Part shown: positions 457-6,419 of the stretch, in pieces
How the letters are laid out: every line of letters begins with the position of its first letter
Position numbering within the stretch: the stretch's first letter is position 1
Assembly: GCA_021795255.1 (NCBI GenBank)
Contig: JAJYPQ010000242.1
Span: forward strand, 1 to 6,419
Origin: Pseudomonadota bacterium
GTDB lineage: Bacteria > Pseudomonadota > Gammaproteobacteria > Acidiferrobacterales > Acidiferrobacteraceae
DNA: 6,419 nucleotides
Direction: 5' to 3'
Notes under the pieces: generated by a model
What the model was told of the DNA's origin: nothing
Seen by the model: the letters and a program-made list of their open reading frames with translations, nothing else
Databases searched by the model: none
Position numbers and translations under genes: made by a program

Positions 457-1185
457 CTAATTCCGCTGAGGAGCCAGAATACTTAAAGGGTATTCCGGAC
501 CGTCCCCATAACAATACCCCAGAAAGGGACAGGGGTAGGGATCCTCACAGTGATCGGTGAGCGGCGGCTTGGGGCCCGCGAGCAGGGTCTGGGCCTCTTG
601 GACCCAGCGGGGAACAGCCGTTAAGAGCGAAGCGATATCTTTTGTCAGATCCTCTTTCGCAAAGAGGCGATTCACGCGGCCATGTGACAGGACCTCGTGG
701 TAACAGCCATTCCCGGGATACACAAAGGTGTTATCGACGTACTGCAGCACACTGCGGCGAATCGGGACCCCGGCCTGCTGAAAGGCATAGGTCTGGATGG
801 CCACATCATCCCGGTAATGATCCTTCACGCCGGTGGACGCCTTCACCTCGATGAGATCCCATGTCTTGGTGACGGGTTTTAGGATATCGGCCCGCACCAG
901 GAGATCTTTGTAGGCGACCGTCGCCTCAAAGAGCGGCTGACGGAGCGTGGACTGCAAGGCCTCTGTGGTCTCCTGAAGGGCGAGTGATAAGGGTCCCTCG
1001 GGGGCAATAAGCCGCCCTCCGACGTGCAGATCACGCGCCACGGCGCCTACCTGATGGCCGATGGTAAAGGCCGCCGTCGTCGCATCAGACTCCTCGGCAC
1101 AATCCGGCTCATGCACCGAGAGCCAGAGCCGGCGCGGACATTGGCGATAGGCCATGAGTTTCGATTTCGATAAGCCGTAGCTCAT
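457..1185 (-). CDS. Cas4/RecB-like PD-(D/E)XK nuclease, short form of the DUF2779 protein N-terminal half
   Basis: Predicted Mg2+-dependent DNA nuclease with an Fe-S cluster. Visible motifs: N-terminal Cys16 in YRQCPRRLW, the GHQVG motif with His44, Asp100 (VRAD), Glu113-x-Lys115 (IEVKAS) and Gln131-x-Tyr133 in the following helix. These match the RecB-family active site H...D...ExK...Q. Cys213, Cys219 and Cys225, with Cys16, give the one-plus-three Fe-S cysteine pattern known from Cas4 and AddB. The KDHYRDDVAIQTY region is typical of the nuclease half of DUF2779 proteins (from family memory, about 500 aa or more), where a DUF2779 domain follows the last cysteines. Here translation stops 17 residues after Cys225, so that half is missing. 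A purine-rich ribosome site (GGGGAG, six bases ahead) supports the ATG at 1185. It is third in the cassette, 97 bases after the ATPase gene. It could also be an independent Cas4-like protein and not a truncation. Confidence 0.85.
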   Translation of the reverse strand: MSYGLSKSKLMAYRQCPRRLWLSVHEPDCAEESDATTAAFTIGHQVGAVARDLHVGGRLIAPEGPLSLALQETTEALQSTLRQPLFEATVAYKDLLVRADILKPVTKTWDLIEVKASTGVKDHYRDDVAIQTYAFQQAGVPIRRSVLQYVDNTFVYPGNGCYHEVLSHGRVNRLFAKEDLTKDIASLLTAVPRWVQEAQTLLAGPKPPLTDHCEDPYPCPFLGYCYGDGPEYPLSILAPQRN

Positions 1186-1282
1186 AACCCTCTCCCCTCT
1201 CTTCCCAGAAGGATCTCACTCAATCCGGCCCGAACGCGACCCGATCGATGAGCGCGCAGAGGCCGCACACCACAGTCAGACA

Positions 1283-3406
1283 TCACGACAACGCCGCCGT
1301 AAAACCCATGGCGCGGCTCTCCTTGCGATAGCGGACACGCCACGCCCCGGCAACTGCGTCCACGAAAGCCGCCGCCGTCAATATCCCTTGAAGGCGCAGC
1401 CCCTTCACGACCGCCGCCACGTCACCTACGGTCAGCCCCTCGCAGCCATCCAGGATCTGACGTTCCGAGACCGACAAGACGGCGGGTATTCCGTGGTCGG
1501 CGAGCACGCGGATCATCAGCGTGCGCCTTTGCACAAGACTCAGGGGCTCGAAGGTCAGCGTGCGATCGAACCGCCGGAAGACGGCATCGTCGAGATCATC
1601 GAGGGCATTGGTGGTGGCGATGAAGATCCCATCGAATTCTTCCATCTGCGTCAGCATCTCGTTCACCTGAGTGACCTCCCAGCTATGGTGGGCGTGCGCG
1701 CGGTTACGCAAAAACGAATCGCATTCATCCAGTAAAAGGATGGCGTCTTGCGTACGGGCACGCGCAAACATCTGACTGATGTGCCGTTCGGCCATACCGA
1801 CATAAGGATCGAGGAGGTCGGAGGCCCGATAGCTCACAAACGGGCGCCCGAGGGTGGTTGCGACATGCCGCGCCCAGGCGCTCTTGCCGGTCCCCGGGGC
1901 CCCGGCACAGAGCAGTCGGGCGCTGCCTGTCGCCTGAATGCCGGCGAGTAAAGCCGGGAGATCGCAGTCGGCCGAAAGGTACTCGAGATCATAGGCCAGC
2001 GGCGACGAGAACGGACTGGGCAATCGGGCCTGCCCCAAGATCGTCAAAAGGCCATTTAAGGTCTCCTCGCAAAAGGCGGCACGCATATCACGATCGGGTC
2101 GGTCGGCGATGGCTGTGGTCTTTGCGGCCTGGGCGAGCACACCCGGCACCAAGGTCTCGTGACGGGCAATGCGCGCGGCCAACGGATGATCACCTAACCC
2201 TAAAGGTGACAAGTATTCCGCCACCAGACGGGCGCGCACGGCCGGCGGCGGAGGCGGGATCTCACAGGCGAGACTAAAGCGTCGCAACAGCGCCGGATCG
2301 ATACCCTCGATACTATTGGTAATCCAGAGAGTCGGTGCGGCCGCCTGCTCCAAGAGATCCACGGAATAACCCTTGCCAGGCCCCGTCCGGGACCTGAGCC
2401 CCGGAAACTCGTACTCTTCCCGAAAATAGTCCTCGATCTCATCGAACAAGACGATCGTGCGTCCCGCCGCCGCCCCCAGATGGGCAACCAGACGCAGCGC
2501 CTTCACCCGCCCATCGCGCGAGAGCCCGTCACCATCTTCATCCATCACCGCAACCTCGAGGAGCCGCGCCTTAAGATCCGCGGCCAGCGCCCGGGCCAAG
2601 GCCGTCTTGCCCGTCCCAGGTGGTCCATAAAGGAGAATATTGACGCCCTTGTGACCATAGCTTGCCTGGTCCAGAAGCGGTCGCATGAGGGTAATGACGC
2701 CCGCCAGATGCGCAAAATCCGCCAGCGCGCGCGGCTCGCAGGTGGCAGGCTTCACATAGCGGGCCAATAAGGTGGCCGCACAGAGATCGGGCTCCAAAAG
2801 CCGCGAGAAGAGATTCGGCACAGTCTCTAGCCAATCATCGAGATCCCGTCCCACTCCCGAACTCTCCACACCGACGAGGCCTGCTGTCACGAGCACCGAT
2901 GTCCGCGTGAGTGCCGCCCCCACGGCCTCGGGTGCTACCTTCAGGCAGATCGCGATCAAGTCGATCAACTCGCTGCGATTACGCACCCGTCCGAAATAGG
3001 CGGCCCCTCGCTGAAAAGCCCCCCGGTGCTTGGCCACCGCCGCCAATACGAGAAGCGCTTGCTCCATCTCACTCAAACTCAAATCGGCGGCCAGGGCCCG
3101 TACCGCGGGAATTTGGGGCAATGCGGTCTTTTCGGCATCGCGCAGCGCGGCCTTCAAAGCCAAAAGCAGCGCGCGTCGCGAAGAGCGACCATCCACGGCG
3201 CCCACGCCGAGCAAGGCTTGCAGGGCGGATTCCTCCGGCCCCCACTCGTCTTCGTCACAGACCCGCTCCCAGGCGCTCCCCAGACGCCGCCAGCCATCGG
3301 TCGCAAGCAGCCCGCGCAAAAGCCACAGGCGCTCCCGTTGATCGATCGCGGCATGGGGGCCCACAGCCTTGCGACGGAAGGCACGATGGATCGGGGGTTT
3401 CGTCAT
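1283..3406 (-). CDS. Tandem AAA+ ATPase (two ATPase modules), WYL-associated family
   Basis: Cytosolic two-module AAA+ motor of 707 aa, probably a hexameric remodeller of protein or nucleoprotein complexes. Residues 1-245 are a helical N-terminal region. Module 1 has Walker A GPPGTGKT (261-268), Walker B IVLFDE (318-323), sensor-1 ITN (362-364) and paired arginines 375-376. Module 2 has Walker A GAPGTGKS (502-509), Walker B ILLLDE (556-561), sensor-1 TTN (598-600) and FRRFDR (610-615). Both sites keep catalytic Glu and Arg-finger candidates, so both should hydrolyse ATP. An aromatic pore-loop motif YVG (535-537) is seen only in module 2; module 1 has an acidic DEDGDG (289-294) instead. The NEMLTQME segment and the DEDGD motif match a proteobacterial AAA family that I recall as often lying beside WYL regulators. 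The ATG is preceded by GGAG at five bases. A run of five prolines (384-388) is unusual. It follows the regulator by 137 bases. Substrate unknown. Confidence 0.9.
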   Translation of the reverse strand: MTKPPIHRAFRRKAVGPHAAIDQRERLWLLRGLLATDGWRRLGSAWERVCDEDEWGPEESALQALLGVGAVDGRSSRRALLLALKAALRDAEKTALPQIPAVRALAADLSLSEMEQALLVLAAVAKHRGAFQRGAAYFGRVRNRSELIDLIAICLKVAPEAVGAALTRTSVLVTAGLVGVESSGVGRDLDDWLETVPNLFSRLLEPDLCAATLLARYVKPATCEPRALADFAHLAGVITLMRPLLDQASYGHKGVNILLYGPPGTGKTALARALAADLKARLLEVAVMDEDGDGLSRDGRVKALRLVAHLGAAAGRTIVLFDEIEDYFREEYEFPGLRSRTGPGKGYSVDLLEQAAAPTLWITNSIEGIDPALLRRFSLACEIPPPPPAVRARLVAEYLSPLGLGDHPLAARIARHETLVPGVLAQAAKTTAIADRPDRDMRAAFCEETLNGLLTILGQARLPSPFSSPLAYDLEYLSADCDLPALLAGIQATGSARLLCAGAPGTGKSAWARHVATTLGRPFVSYRASDLLDPYVGMAERHISQMFARARTQDAILLLDECDSFLRNRAHAHHSWEVTQVNEMLTQMEEFDGIFIATTNALDDLDDAVFRRFDRTLTFEPLSLVQRRTLMIRVLADHGIPAVLSVSERQILDGCEGLTVGDVAAVVKGLRLQGILTAAAFVDAVAGAWRVRYRKESRAMGFTAALS

Positions 3407-3543
3407 AGAGGCTCCGGGGTCAGTAGGAAACAGACCCGTATAATACGACCGTCTTGCGTCAAAATGTGTCGCACAGAGATCTCACCGCCATCGCCCCTAT
3501 GACAGAAAAGACTCGTCTGAGATACTCGCAGAAGCGCGCTATT

Positions 3544-4590
3544 TTAGGGGGTACGGCGCCTTTGCGATCGCTTTTCATAGGGACTCAAGGCCGTACGTAA
3601 TGCCTCTCTTGCCCACCGCCGCAAACGGGCGGGGGCCATCACTTCGATGTCCGCCCCTTGGCTCAAGATCCAGGCGCGCAAAGCGAAACTGTCGGTGACG
3701 GTTGCCGTCACGATGGAGGTCTCGGCTTCATCCTGAATCACCTGGTCGGTCGCCAGAGGGGCTTCCGTGAGATAAAGCGCCGCAACCGAGGACACCCGTA
3801 GAGTCAATCGCAAAGGGTCGGTGGCCACTGGGATATGAAAGGCGCCGCTTGCCACATAGGTATCGAGATCGAAGTCATCGGGCCGATACGCTCGAGATGT
3901 GTTCAGGGCGGCCTGTGTCATGCGGTGCAAGGCATAATGACGTGGGTCGCGATAGTCCCAGGCGGTCGCCACCAGATAATACGCGCCATCGGAACGAACC
4001 AAGCCCAGAGGATGCAAGAGCTGTTCAGAGGATACCTCTTGGCCGACCCCGCGGTAGTGGACCGTCAACGTGCACCCGCGAAAGAGCGCCTCGCACACCG
4101 CCTGTAAAATCGCCGCCACGACCTGCGGGGCGCGTCCTGGCCGACGTAAATCGAGCACACGCACGGCATCCCGCCAACGCGAGAGGCGGGATGGACCGGC
4201 TTGCGCCAAGACCCCGCGGGCCTCGGTAAAAAACGACAACAGAGTCTTATGTAAGGTCGGTGGCAGAGTCTCGCCGCCATGCATCTCTAACAACACAAAA
4301 GCCACCGCCTGCGCGTCGCTTAAGCGATAGCGGCTATCGGGATGACCTTTACCGACCCATGATATCCCATAGGGTTTGGCACGACGATCCACATTGATGG
4401 CTTTTGCGAATACCGCTTCGAGGGTCGTGATATCGCGTTCGAGGGTGCGGCGCGTAAGACCTTTCAGGGCATCCGTACCGGCACCGGTCGATGCCAAGTA
4501 CGCCAGAAGTTCGGGGATGGTTATCCGCCGAGGAGAGGGTGGAATGGCACGCAATACATGCCATTGGCGCTCAATGGTCTCAGCGGGCAT
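3544..4590 (-). CDS. WYL-domain transcriptional regulator (wHTH-WYL-WCX)
   Basis: DNA-binding regulator of 348 aa, probably ligand-controlled and dimeric. An N-terminal winged helix-turn-helix (about 5-80) contains TRRTLERDITTLE (46-58), the usual recognition-helix pattern of this family. The WYL domain spans about 170-235, with HPLGL (193-197), the name motif as YYL (204-206, Tyr replacing Trp) and HRM with Arg223, one of the conserved ligand-pocket basic residues. A WCX-like C-terminal domain follows (about 256-331). The ATG at 4590 was chosen because AGAGGA lies ten bases ahead. An in-frame GTG at 4647 would add 19 residues but has no clear ribosome site and its extension is unlike a family N-terminus. 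First gene of the minus-strand cassette, so probably its regulator. WYL proteins such as BrxR and CapW control defence operons, and others (PafBC) respond to DNA damage. The ligand is unknown. Confidence 0.9.
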   Translation of the reverse strand: MPAETIERQWHVLRAIPPSPRRITIPELLAYLASTGAGTDALKGLTRRTLERDITTLEAVFAKAINVDRRAKPYGISWVGKGHPDSRYRLSDAQAVAFVLLEMHGGETLPPTLHKTLLSFFTEARGVLAQAGPSRLSRWRDAVRVLDLRRPGRAPQVVAAILQAVCEALFRGCTLTVHYRGVGQEVSSEQLLHPLGLVRSDGAYYLVATAWDYRDPRHYALHRMTQAALNTSRAYRPDDFDLDTYVASGAFHIPVATDPLRLTLRVSSVAALYLTEAPLATDQVIQDEAETSIVTATVTDSFALRAWILSQGADIEVMAPARLRRWAREALRTALSPYEKRSQRRRTP

Positions 4591-4650
4591 ATATGTGGGT
4601 TCCTCTCGCCATTGTCCGCGACCGTCACCTTCTGGTAGGCGGGGCACGGA

Positions 4651-4679
4651 TTTCAGATAGTGATCTACGGCGGCTGAAA
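4651..4679. promoter_or_regulatory. Inverted repeat TTTCAG-N17-CTGAAA upstream of the WYL gene
   Basis: A perfect 6-bp inverted repeat (4651-4656 and 4674-4679) with half-site centres 23 bp apart, about two helical turns, 61-89 bases before the regulator's ATG. This is the spacing expected for a dimeric operator, and WYL regulators of the BrxR/CapW type bind inverted repeats at their own promoters. No convincing -35/-10 pair sits beside it, and a 6-bp repeat can arise by chance. Confidence 0.3.
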
Positions 4680-4726
4680 CGCGATCTGTGAATACGCGGC
4701 CCCGCCCCTCTTTATGCCCACCACCC

Positions 4727-4758
4727 GGTGCCCACTCAACGCACCACTGCCGGGCACC
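4727..4758. promoter_or_regulatory. Inverted repeat GGTGCCC-N18-GGGCACC
   Basis: A perfect 7-bp inverted repeat (4727-4733 and 4752-4758) whose right half overlaps the first two bases of the 58-bp repeat A. It lies about 140-170 bases upstream of the regulator. It could be a second operator or a stem-loop bordering the repeat region. No counterpart is seen beside repeat B. Confidence 0.3.
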
Positions 4759-4814
4759 AATATAGCACTCCCTTTTGGCTAGCGCGCCAAGACAGCACGC
4801 CCTTGTCGGCCTTT
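4757..4814. repeat. 58-bp direct repeat, copy A
   Basis: Aligns without gaps to 5247-5304 with 44 of 58 bases identical. Both ends are fully conserved: CCAATATA at the left and TTGTCGGCCTTT at the right. Most differences are transitions. On the minus strand the left end reads TGCTATATT, an extended -10-like sequence pointing toward the WYL gene, about 170 bases before its ATG, but there is no good -35. The copy lies 30 bases before GTTCG array A. Confidence 0.75.
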
Positions 4815-4844
4815 AGTGACGAAGATCCCTGGGGGGGGTGTGCG

Positions 4845-4931
4845 CGAACCGTTCGTATGCGTTCGTCTGTGTTCAGAAGCGTTCGCGAACCGTTCGGTGG
4901 CATTCGCGAACGCGGACGAACGCTTACGAAC
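4845..4931. repeat. GTTCG/CGAAC palindromic array A (about 10-bp period)
   Basis: GTTCG or one-mismatch forms start at 4851, 4861, 4871, 4881, 4892 and 4902. The complement CGAAC starts at 4845, 4886, 4907, 4917 and 4927. Spacing is 10-11 bases, close to a DNA helical turn. The outer 24-base arms, 4851-4874 and 4908-4931, pair at 21 of 24 positions, with two of the three exceptions G-U wobbles in RNA. The centre holds the perfect palindrome GTTCGCGAAC (4881-4890). A 10-bp period is incompatible with a protein repeat. There are no CRISPR-like spacers. Confidence 0.85.
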
Positions 4932-4942
4932 CCCCTTTTTTT
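4851..4942 (+). terminator. Long hairpin followed by T7, terminator-like on the plus strand
   Basis: The 24-base arms of array A close a long stem that is followed by four further C (4932-4935) and seven T (4936-4942), the layout of a Rho-independent terminator. The stem is far longer than usual and there is no obvious plus-strand gene just upstream. It would either end an unseen RNA starting right of the WYL gene or be a by-product of the palindromic array. Confidence 0.35.
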
Positions 4943-4992
4943 GGGAGGCCCCGCACTCCCTGGGGTACCCCTAGAGACAGGTACCTCTGGGG
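4943..4992. other. Cluster of overlapping short inverted repeats (GGGAG/CTCCC, GGGGTACCCC, CCCCTAGAG/CTCTGGGG)
   Basis: Three nested or adjacent palindromes follow the T7 run. GGGAG (4943-4947) pairs with CTCCC (4956-4960) across an 8-base loop. GGGGTACCCC (4962-4971) is a perfect palindrome. CCCCTAGAG (4968-4976) pairs with CTCTGGGG (4985-4992) apart from one bulged T. The last two overlap, so they are alternative folds. GGTACC occurs twice, at 4964 and 4980. Role unknown. Confidence 0.5.
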
Positions 4993-5097
4993 TTAATAAG
5001 AGAAGAGTCGTCAGGCGATGGCCGCCATCCCGGCGCCGATGAGCTCTCCCGCCACAAAATGAGGCAGAGTCGGGCTCAATACACGCACGTCGACCCC

Positions 5098-5160
5098 GTT
5101 CGAGATGTTCGCGAACCGTTCGTACGCATTCAGTGGCGTTCGCGAACGCGGGCGAACGCC
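5098..5160. repeat. GTTCG/CGAAC palindromic array B
   Basis: GTTCG starts at 5098, 5107, 5118 and 5138, with a degenerate ATTCA at 5128. CGAAC starts at 5112, 5143 and 5153. The 16 bases at 5107-5122 are identical to 4881-4896 in array A, and the 27 bases 5133-5159 match 4897-4923 at 25 positions. In array A these two blocks touch; here 10 bases (5123-5132) lie between them, exactly one repeat unit. GTTCGCGAAC occurs twice (5107-5116 and 5138-5147). Confidence 0.8.
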
Positions 5161-5211
5161 TGAGCCCCGGTTCCCCATCACACCCGCGACCCCTGCAATG
5201 CGTGACCAAAT

Positions 5212-5242
5212 CTTGGCAGCCCACGACCGCGCCGCAGCCAAG
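5212..5242. other. Stem-loop CTTGGC/GCCAAG
   Basis: A perfect 6-bp inverted repeat (5212-5217 and 5237-5242), extended by GC/GC after one A-A mismatch, with a 13-base loop. It lies just before 58-bp repeat B and has no equivalent beside copy A. It may be an operator or part of a folded RNA. Confidence 0.3.
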
Positions 5243-5246
5243 CTAC

Positions 5247-5304
5247 CCAATATAATACTCACCTCTGACTAACGCGCCGACGCGACACTCCGTTGTCGGC
5301 CTTT
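5247..5304. repeat. 58-bp direct repeat, copy B
   Basis: Same orientation as copy A (4757-4814), 490 bases away, 44 of 58 identical, no gaps. On the plus strand it contains a perfect TATAAT (5251-5256) without a recognisable -35. Its right end forms a small terminator-like hairpin that copy A does not keep intact. It lies 86 bases after array B, so the two 58-bp copies bracket the two arrays. Confidence 0.75.
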
Positions 5305-6283: not shown

Positions 6284-6308
6284 TGGCGAGCACTGTGAAC
6301 GATCGCCA
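6284..6308. other. Stem-loop TGGCGA/TCGCCA
   Basis: A perfect 6-bp inverted repeat (6284-6289 and 6303-6308) with a 13-base loop in gene-free sequence. No adjacent T run or promoter was seen. Low individual significance. Confidence 0.25.
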
Positions 6309-6419
6309 AGTTCCGCGTCTTTCTGGATCATACACGCGGAAAGAACCCTGGAGTCTGTAAATCCTTCTCGATGGCAAATGCGATCACACGCGATTCATGA
6401 CGACGCAGGCCTGCCAATG

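What the first reader, a model, noticed from the sequence alone, without database searches (positions are those of the whole stretch)
4845..5160. Two helically phased GTTCG/CGAAC palindrome arrays upstream of the cassette
Pentamers GTTCG and CGAAC recur at 10-11 bp spacing in two arrays (4845-4931, 5098-5160) that share a 16-bp identical block and a 25/27 block. The arrays differ in these blocks by one 10-bp unit, as if units are gained or lost. The phasing places sites on one face of the helix, as for cooperative protein binding (operator, partition, replication or recombination site). The symmetry also allows strong hairpins. I do not recognise this as a named repeat family.
Basis: partly seen in the sequence, partly recalled or inferred. 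Interest (0 to 1): 0.7.

Follow-up and report, generated by a model that had tools for sequence, protein, structure and literature searches.

The report
Phased binding-site array beside defence genes
Upstream of a small set of probable virus-defence genes lie two clusters of a short DNA word repeated once per turn of the double helix, most likely a landing strip where several copies of a control protein bind side by side, although that protein has not been identified.

Summary
Nine exact GTTCG/CGAAC words lie within 90 bp (A1); no pentamer exceeded five in 300 shuffles. Same-strand words are phased at about 10.25 bp. The unit is a 7-bp half-site, GCGTTCG, plus 3 bp. A1 and A2 share a 16-bp identical block and a 25/27 block whose spacing differs by one 10-bp unit.

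It is not a dispersed repeat. The one close relative, L001, has a single array at the same place upstream of the same WYL regulator. No other array was found in 193 relatives or 397 genomes of the phylum. The array core is 78/82 identical to L001's, against 188/241 for the DNA between array and WYL and 261/349 for WYL third codon positions, which suggests selection.

The hairpin is strong only in A1. I favour a cooperative protein-binding array controlling a WYL/double-AAA+/Cas4-like cassette. The binder is unproven: 0 of 17 more distant WYL loci have an array. The outer edges of the three arrays abut unrelated sequences, so a mobile-element end remains a live rival. All rests on three arrays at two loci.

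The parts
4845..4931 (.). Array A1: 9 exact and 2 imperfect GTTCG/CGAAC half-sites on a ~10.25-bp lattice
   Evidence: 78/82 of its core identical to L001
5098..5166 (.). Array A2: 7 exact half-sites and one poor one; one extra internal 10-bp unit, cut short on the WYL side
4757..4814 (-). D2a: 58-bp element with a TATATT box read towards WYL, 30 bp from A1; promoter role is inferred only
   Evidence: found in G001 at the same place, and a weak 26-bp match in G014, among 31 genomes; no sigma-70 match
5247..5304 (-). D2b: second copy of D2, 76% identical, direct orientation, beyond A2
   Evidence: 86% to the L001 copy
5184..5242 (+). Fragment of a TrwC-type relaxase gene between A2 and D2b (not part of the array)
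3544..4590 (-). WYL+WCX transcriptional regulator (longer start possible at 4647)
   Evidence: nearest solved relatives DriD, PafBC
1283..3406 (-). AAA+ ATPase with two AAA domains, 707 aa
457..1185 (-). Cas4-like nuclease, 242 aa
   Evidence: Pfam Cas_Cas4 21.8 bits, below its cut-off of 22.7; PADLOC Cas4 7.3e-9

Best explanation
The arrays are clustered protein-binding sites in the control region of the WYL/AAA+/nuclease cassette. A dimeric or oligomerising DNA-binding protein binds 7-bp half-sites (GCGTTCG) placed once per helical turn, many copies side by side, and so acts cooperatively on the cassette promoter, which lies between the array and WYL. The first candidate binder is the cassette's own WYL regulator, whose nearest solved relatives, DriD and PafBC, are activators; another cassette or host regulator is the alternative. 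A2 is a shortened extra copy left by recombination. Shown: sequence, phase, conservation, low copy number, position upstream of WYL at both loci. Inferred: binding, cooperativity, promoter, binder.
For: Clustering and phase far above shuffles. Core 78/82 identical between window and L001, against 188/241 for array-to-WYL DNA and 261/349 for WYL third codon positions (Fisher p 1.9e-4 and 1.0e-5). Position kept, about 255 and 243 bp from the WYL ATG. Single copy in the relative's genome. One-unit difference keeps phase. The array goes with this WYL version at both known loci while the AAA+ partner was swapped (52% identical). Precedents: RptR represses a defence island from three direct repeats; BldC and Apl bind repeats cooperatively.
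Against: No binding or promoter shown; no sigma-70-like site by scan. 0 of 17 more distant WYL loci have an array, although versions 54-58% identical have a similar recognition helix (LTRRTLERDI against LTVRTLERDI). Described WYL sites are single inverted repeats: BrxR 11-5-11, DriD 20 bp. The 3-bp spacers are also nearly unchanged between A1 and L001, more than a half-site model requires, so recent transfer of the array could explain the identity. Three arrays at two loci.
Confidence: 0.48

Rival explanations
1. The array is the end of a mobile element or an accessory recombination site: phased sites for a transposase, integrase or excisionase-like protein, with the cassette as cargo.
For: All three arrays have a similar outer edge, and beyond it the three flanks are unrelated. 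In L001 homology to the gene upstream of WYL in G004 stops at 332 and the array edge begins at 341. A2 is followed within 20 bp by a relaxase-gene fragment. Excisionase sites are repeats one turn apart (Apl).
Against: No recombinase gene in the window by ORF and Pfam scan of its four main genes; no second end seen; the rest of the interrupted gene gave no match elsewhere in the G001 assembly; one copy per genome. Apl sites are direct repeats; here orientations are mixed.
Confidence: 0.22
2. A maintenance site (iterons or partition centromere) captured from a plasmid or integrative element.
For: Phased repeats in two groups; a TrwC relaxase fragment beside A2.
Against: No replication or partition gene recognised in the window; no similar DNA beyond short matches in 72,556 plasmid records and none in 50,697 phage records.
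Confidence: 0.12
3. A structured RNA, terminator or cruciform-forming repeat.
For: A1 folds far better than shuffles (z about -5) and on the + strand is followed by CCCCCTTTTTTT at 4932-4943.
Against: A2 and L001 do not fold unusually well (z -0.7 to -2.2) and lack the T run; no Rfam match at E up to 1; the terminator scan did not list A1.
Confidence: 0.08
4. A dispersed REP-like repeat or chance.
For: Short palindromic GC-rich units.
Against: One array in the relative's genome: of 26 matches at E up to 10, two are this array and the other 24 are 15-30 bp pieces, best E 0.07. No array match in 193 other relatives or 397 genomes of the phylum. Far above shuffles.
Confidence: 0.03

Closest known systems
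RptR operator of a Type I restriction/DarTG2 defence island (PMC12255303; abstract, outline and passages seen)
   Same: Tandem short sites in front of a defence island; two or more sites needed for full repression
   Different: Three 9-bp repeats with TAGCTA over the -10 box; here 8-11 half-sites, 10-bp pitch, mixed orientation, no RptR-like gene recognised
BrxR sites of WYL regulators in defence islands (PMC9122601; passages seen)
   Same: WYL gene first in a probable defence cassette, site upstream
   Different: BrxR binds one 11-5-11 inverted repeat next to the promoter; here a long array about 255 bp upstream
DriD site (PMC12340889, preprint; passages seen)
   Same: Nearest solved relative of this WYL protein by sequence and fold; G-containing half-sites
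   Different: One 20-bp pseudo-palindrome, ATACGAC(X)7GTCGTAT, not an array
Apl/excisionase sites of phage 186 (PMC7498355; passages seen)
   Same: Five to seven sites, 10-11 bp apart, cooperative; used for both recombination and transcription
   Different: Direct repeats only; no phage or integrase gene recognised here
BldC sites (PMC5859096; abstract and outline seen)
   Same: Cooperative multimers on a variable number of direct repeats
   Different: No BldC-like gene recognised here; mixed orientation here

Membership tests
BrxR-type WYL operator | WYL gene at the head of a defence cassette, site upstream | tested here: met
   defence role of this cassette inferred from families and a distant WYL-AAA+ pair beside BREX-2 genes
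BrxR-type WYL operator | Single inverted repeat with 11-bp arms and 5-bp spacer close to the promoter | tested here: not met
   Array differs; no inverted repeat with arms of 8 or more at up to 40 bp distance in 4590-4845
BrxR-type WYL operator | WYL protein binds it | not testable with these tools
   needs a shift assay; 0 of 17 more distant WYL loci carry an array
RptR-type repeat operator | TAGCTA repeats over the -10 box | tested here: not met
   The repeat word is GTTCG, and A1 lies 30 bp beyond D2a
Excisionase (RDF) sites | Sites one helical turn apart | tested here: met
Excisionase (RDF) sites | Direct repeats beside an integrase crossover site and integrase gene | tested here: not met
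   Mixed orientation; no integrase found among the four main genes; distant flanks not seen
Mobile-element terminus | Same end joined to unrelated DNA in different copies | tested here: inconclusive
   Three outer flanks unrelated; no empty site, target duplication or second end seen
REP-like dispersed repeat | Many intergenic copies per genome | tested here: not met
   (relatives only; own genome not held)
LexA box of alphaproteobacteria, GTTCN7GTTC (recalled) | 11-bp pitch | tested here: not met
   Pitch about 10.25; coherence at 11 bp only 0.49-0.76
Known RNA family | Match to an Rfam model | tested here: not met
   0 matches at E up to 1

The most novel reading that the evidence does not exclude
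A DriD-like WYL regulator, or a partner, forms a cooperative filament on a helically phased array of 8-11 mixed-orientation half-sites, and the cassette tunes its defence response by gaining or losing whole 10-bp units. I saw no such array operator for a WYL regulator in the listings or the passages I opened.
Probability: 0.2. Interest if true: 0.62.

Novelty: new variant of a known kind. Interest (0 to 1): 0.42.

Why it matters
How defence islands are kept quiet and switched on is still poorly known. A long operator with countable units in front of a WYL-controlled cassette would let the steepness of a defence switch be read from, and tested by, the number of sites. If instead it is an element end, it would mark how such cassettes move and exchange parts.

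Tried and rejected
Rejected: a dispersed repeat; a conserved hairpin or RNA; the middle segment 4932-5097 as a recognisable gene relic (its two matches, in G140 and G180, are 34-36 bp pieces within other frames); the RA3 plasmid paper as a precedent (its GTTCGCGAAC is in primers in the passages shown).

Led nowhere: viral contigs. The 16-mer of A1 matched 20 stretches, the densest with 6 pentamers in 80 bp against 8 by the same count in the window. A longer pattern matched 0. WYL and nuclease searches gave no relative; AAA+ gave five distant loci whose upstream DNA I did not examine. Pattern GTTCGN5GTTCGN5GTTCG: 1 of 194 genomes, against 7 control matches; it misses L001's own array. Pattern GTTCGN4CGTTCGCGAACG with one mismatch: G001 twice and four other genomes once each, against 20 control matches. 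The other five papers were not opened.

Limits of the absence claims: one search scored at most 3 first-look candidates per genome and at most 2; the two genome sets overlap in part; one search scored only 7,993 candidates. Dropped before '0 of 17': second ids of the same genome place; the second WYL piece of G007 (L068/L072, no upstream DNA); L067 (N-terminus not aligned); L065 (not returned by the script). The AlphaFold model of WYL has mean pLDDT 79 but pTM 0.41, and TM-scores to the 32 Foldseek matches at E up to 0.001 are only 0.22-0.36, so just the family assignment is used.

Full report
Observation. Every part of the description holds. A1 (4845-4931) has nine exact GTTCG/CGAAC words and A2 (5098-5160) seven. 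Counting in-phase imperfect words, A1 has 11 half-sites and A2 has 8; the eighth of A2, ATTCA at 5128, has two mismatches. Loose matches are common elsewhere in the window (19.8 per kb), so the case rests on exact words: 9 in 90 bp, against at most 5 for any pentamer in 300 dinucleotide shuffles, and GTTCGN5GTTCG four times against 0.03 expected. Same-strand words keep phase at 10.25 bp with coherence 0.96-1.0; groups are small and four periods were tried. A1 and A2 share a 16-bp identical block and a 25/27 block whose spacing differs by exactly 10 bp.

Anatomy. As 10-bp units the consensus is GTTCGNNNGC, that is a 7-bp half-site GCGTTCG plus 3 bp. Half-sites meet in three ways: head to tail with 3 bp between, abutting as GTTCGCGAAC, or overlapping as CGAACCGTTCG (my reading). 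A1 lies 30 bp from D2a, a 58-bp element with a TATATT box read towards WYL; its inner edge is about 255 bp from the WYL ATG. A second D2 copy lies beyond A2 in the same orientation. No sigma-70-like site was found by consensus scan, so the promoter is not located.

Neighbours. On the minus strand: WYL+WCX regulator, ATPase with two AAA domains, and a weakly matching Cas4-like nuclease (Pfam just below its cut-off). The ATPase reaches no named defence family at its curated cut-off (anti-phage ATPase IteA 117.5 bits against 510). A distant WYL gene next to an ATP-binding protein gene sits beside BREX-2 genes on a Sphaerotilus plasmid. A protein 57% identical to this WYL is named from an Acidiferrobacter MAG. 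The window's own genome is not held.

The relative. L001 is a 4,980-bp contig of a Proteobacteria MAG (genome G001). Its WYL is 89%, nuclease 85% and AAA+ only 52% identical; G004 and G006 have AAA+ 84-87% but WYL 55-58%. The cassette is a mosaic. L001 has one array at the same place. Its core is 78/82 identical to A1, while the DNA between array and WYL is 188/241 and WYL third codon positions are 261/349. Taken over the longer 92-column alignment that includes the outer edge, identity is 82/92. The array changes more slowly than its surroundings; recent transfer of the array alone could give the same picture, and the near identity of the 3-bp spacers fits that too.

Array differences. In a three-way alignment L001 matches A1 on the WYL side, and its outer edge is closer to A2's; A2 has an extra 10-bp unit in the middle and is cut short on the WYL side. 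A unit gain or loss with phase kept is thus seen once.

Distribution. In the genome of L001 the DNA search gave 26 matches at E up to 10: two are this array and the other 24 are short pieces, best E 0.07. Of 194 relatives, G001, G140 and G180 matched; the last two only to the segment between the arrays. Of 398 genomes of the phylum only G001 matched. These searches scored two or three candidates per genome. Of 17 proteins found at E 1e-20 or better, only the window's own and one 90% identical cluster are this WYL version. In a class-wide set 3 of 369 genomes had a WYL at E 1e-60 or better, and only G001 this version. Of 17 other WYL loci with usable upstream DNA none has a pentamer cluster above 5. 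No array-like DNA was found in plasmid or phage records.

Edges. Homology between L001 and the gene upstream of WYL in G004 ends at L001 332; the array edge (GGGCTTCAG) starts at 341. A2's outer side is followed within 20 bp by a 19-residue fragment of a TrwC relaxase gene, present as a long open frame in G006 and G001. A1's outer side is unlike either. One edge with three flanks looks like an element end. Against this, the rest of the interrupted gene gave no match elsewhere in the G001 assembly, no recombinase gene or second end was seen, and the copy number is one.

Mechanism. I judge a cooperative protein-binding array for cassette control most likely (0.48), with WYL as first candidate binder. 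The WYL protein is nearest to DriD and PafBC among solved structures; both are activators, so an upstream array is not out of place. But described WYL sites are single inverted repeats: BrxR 11-5-11, DriD 20 bp. WYL versions with a similar recognition helix lack the array; this is the main evidence against WYL as binder. RptR shows that repeats can control a defence island; Apl and BldC show cooperative binding to repeats; ArdK, a plasmid repressor, can bind both direct and inverted repeats (abstract and outline).

Literature. GTTCGCGAAC is in 6 papers of the library; the one I opened has it in primers. Searches for WYL with operator, inverted repeat and defence (76 papers, 15 listed) and WYL with direct repeats (16 papers, 10 listed) showed me no array operator for a WYL regulator; apart from the papers named above I saw listings only, and the library holds open-licence papers only.

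Limits. Everything rests on three arrays at two loci, one of them a single MAG contig. No binding, promoter or transcript has been shown.

Noticed in passing
window 457-4647; L001, L069, L070: Mosaic cassette: WYL, AAA+ and nuclease have different nearest relatives (WYL 89% to L001, AAA+ 84-87% to L069/L070 but 52% to L001), as if the AAA+ module is exchanged between conserved neighbours.
   Followed up: partly
window 5184-5242: Fragment ATPAMRDQILAAHDRAAAK of a TrwC relaxase between A2 and D2b; long TrwC frames occur in G006 and G001.
   Followed up: yes
window 4757-4814 and 5247-5304: 58-bp D2 elements in direct orientation, one beside each array; the + strand of D2b ends in a terminator-like hairpin (1 found, 0.6 expected). 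Function unknown.
   Followed up: partly
window 6293-6404: A sequence of about 80-110 bp with matches in 9 of 31 genomes, several in G001; gene not identified.
   Followed up: no
L001 4710-4980: Nuclease homology to the window stops at L001 4770, before the gene's end, so its C-terminus differs or is lost.
   Followed up: no
L119 (NZ_CP035707.1 24484-37455): WYL, a large ATP-binding protein and a Sir2-family protein lie beside BREX-2 genes on a Sphaerotilus plasmid, hinting at a variant of the module with another third gene.
   Followed up: no
L070, upstream of WYL: By eye, ACCGCT-N10-AGCGGT close to the WYL start of an array-less version; the repeat search with arms of 8 or more did not list it.
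   Followed up: no
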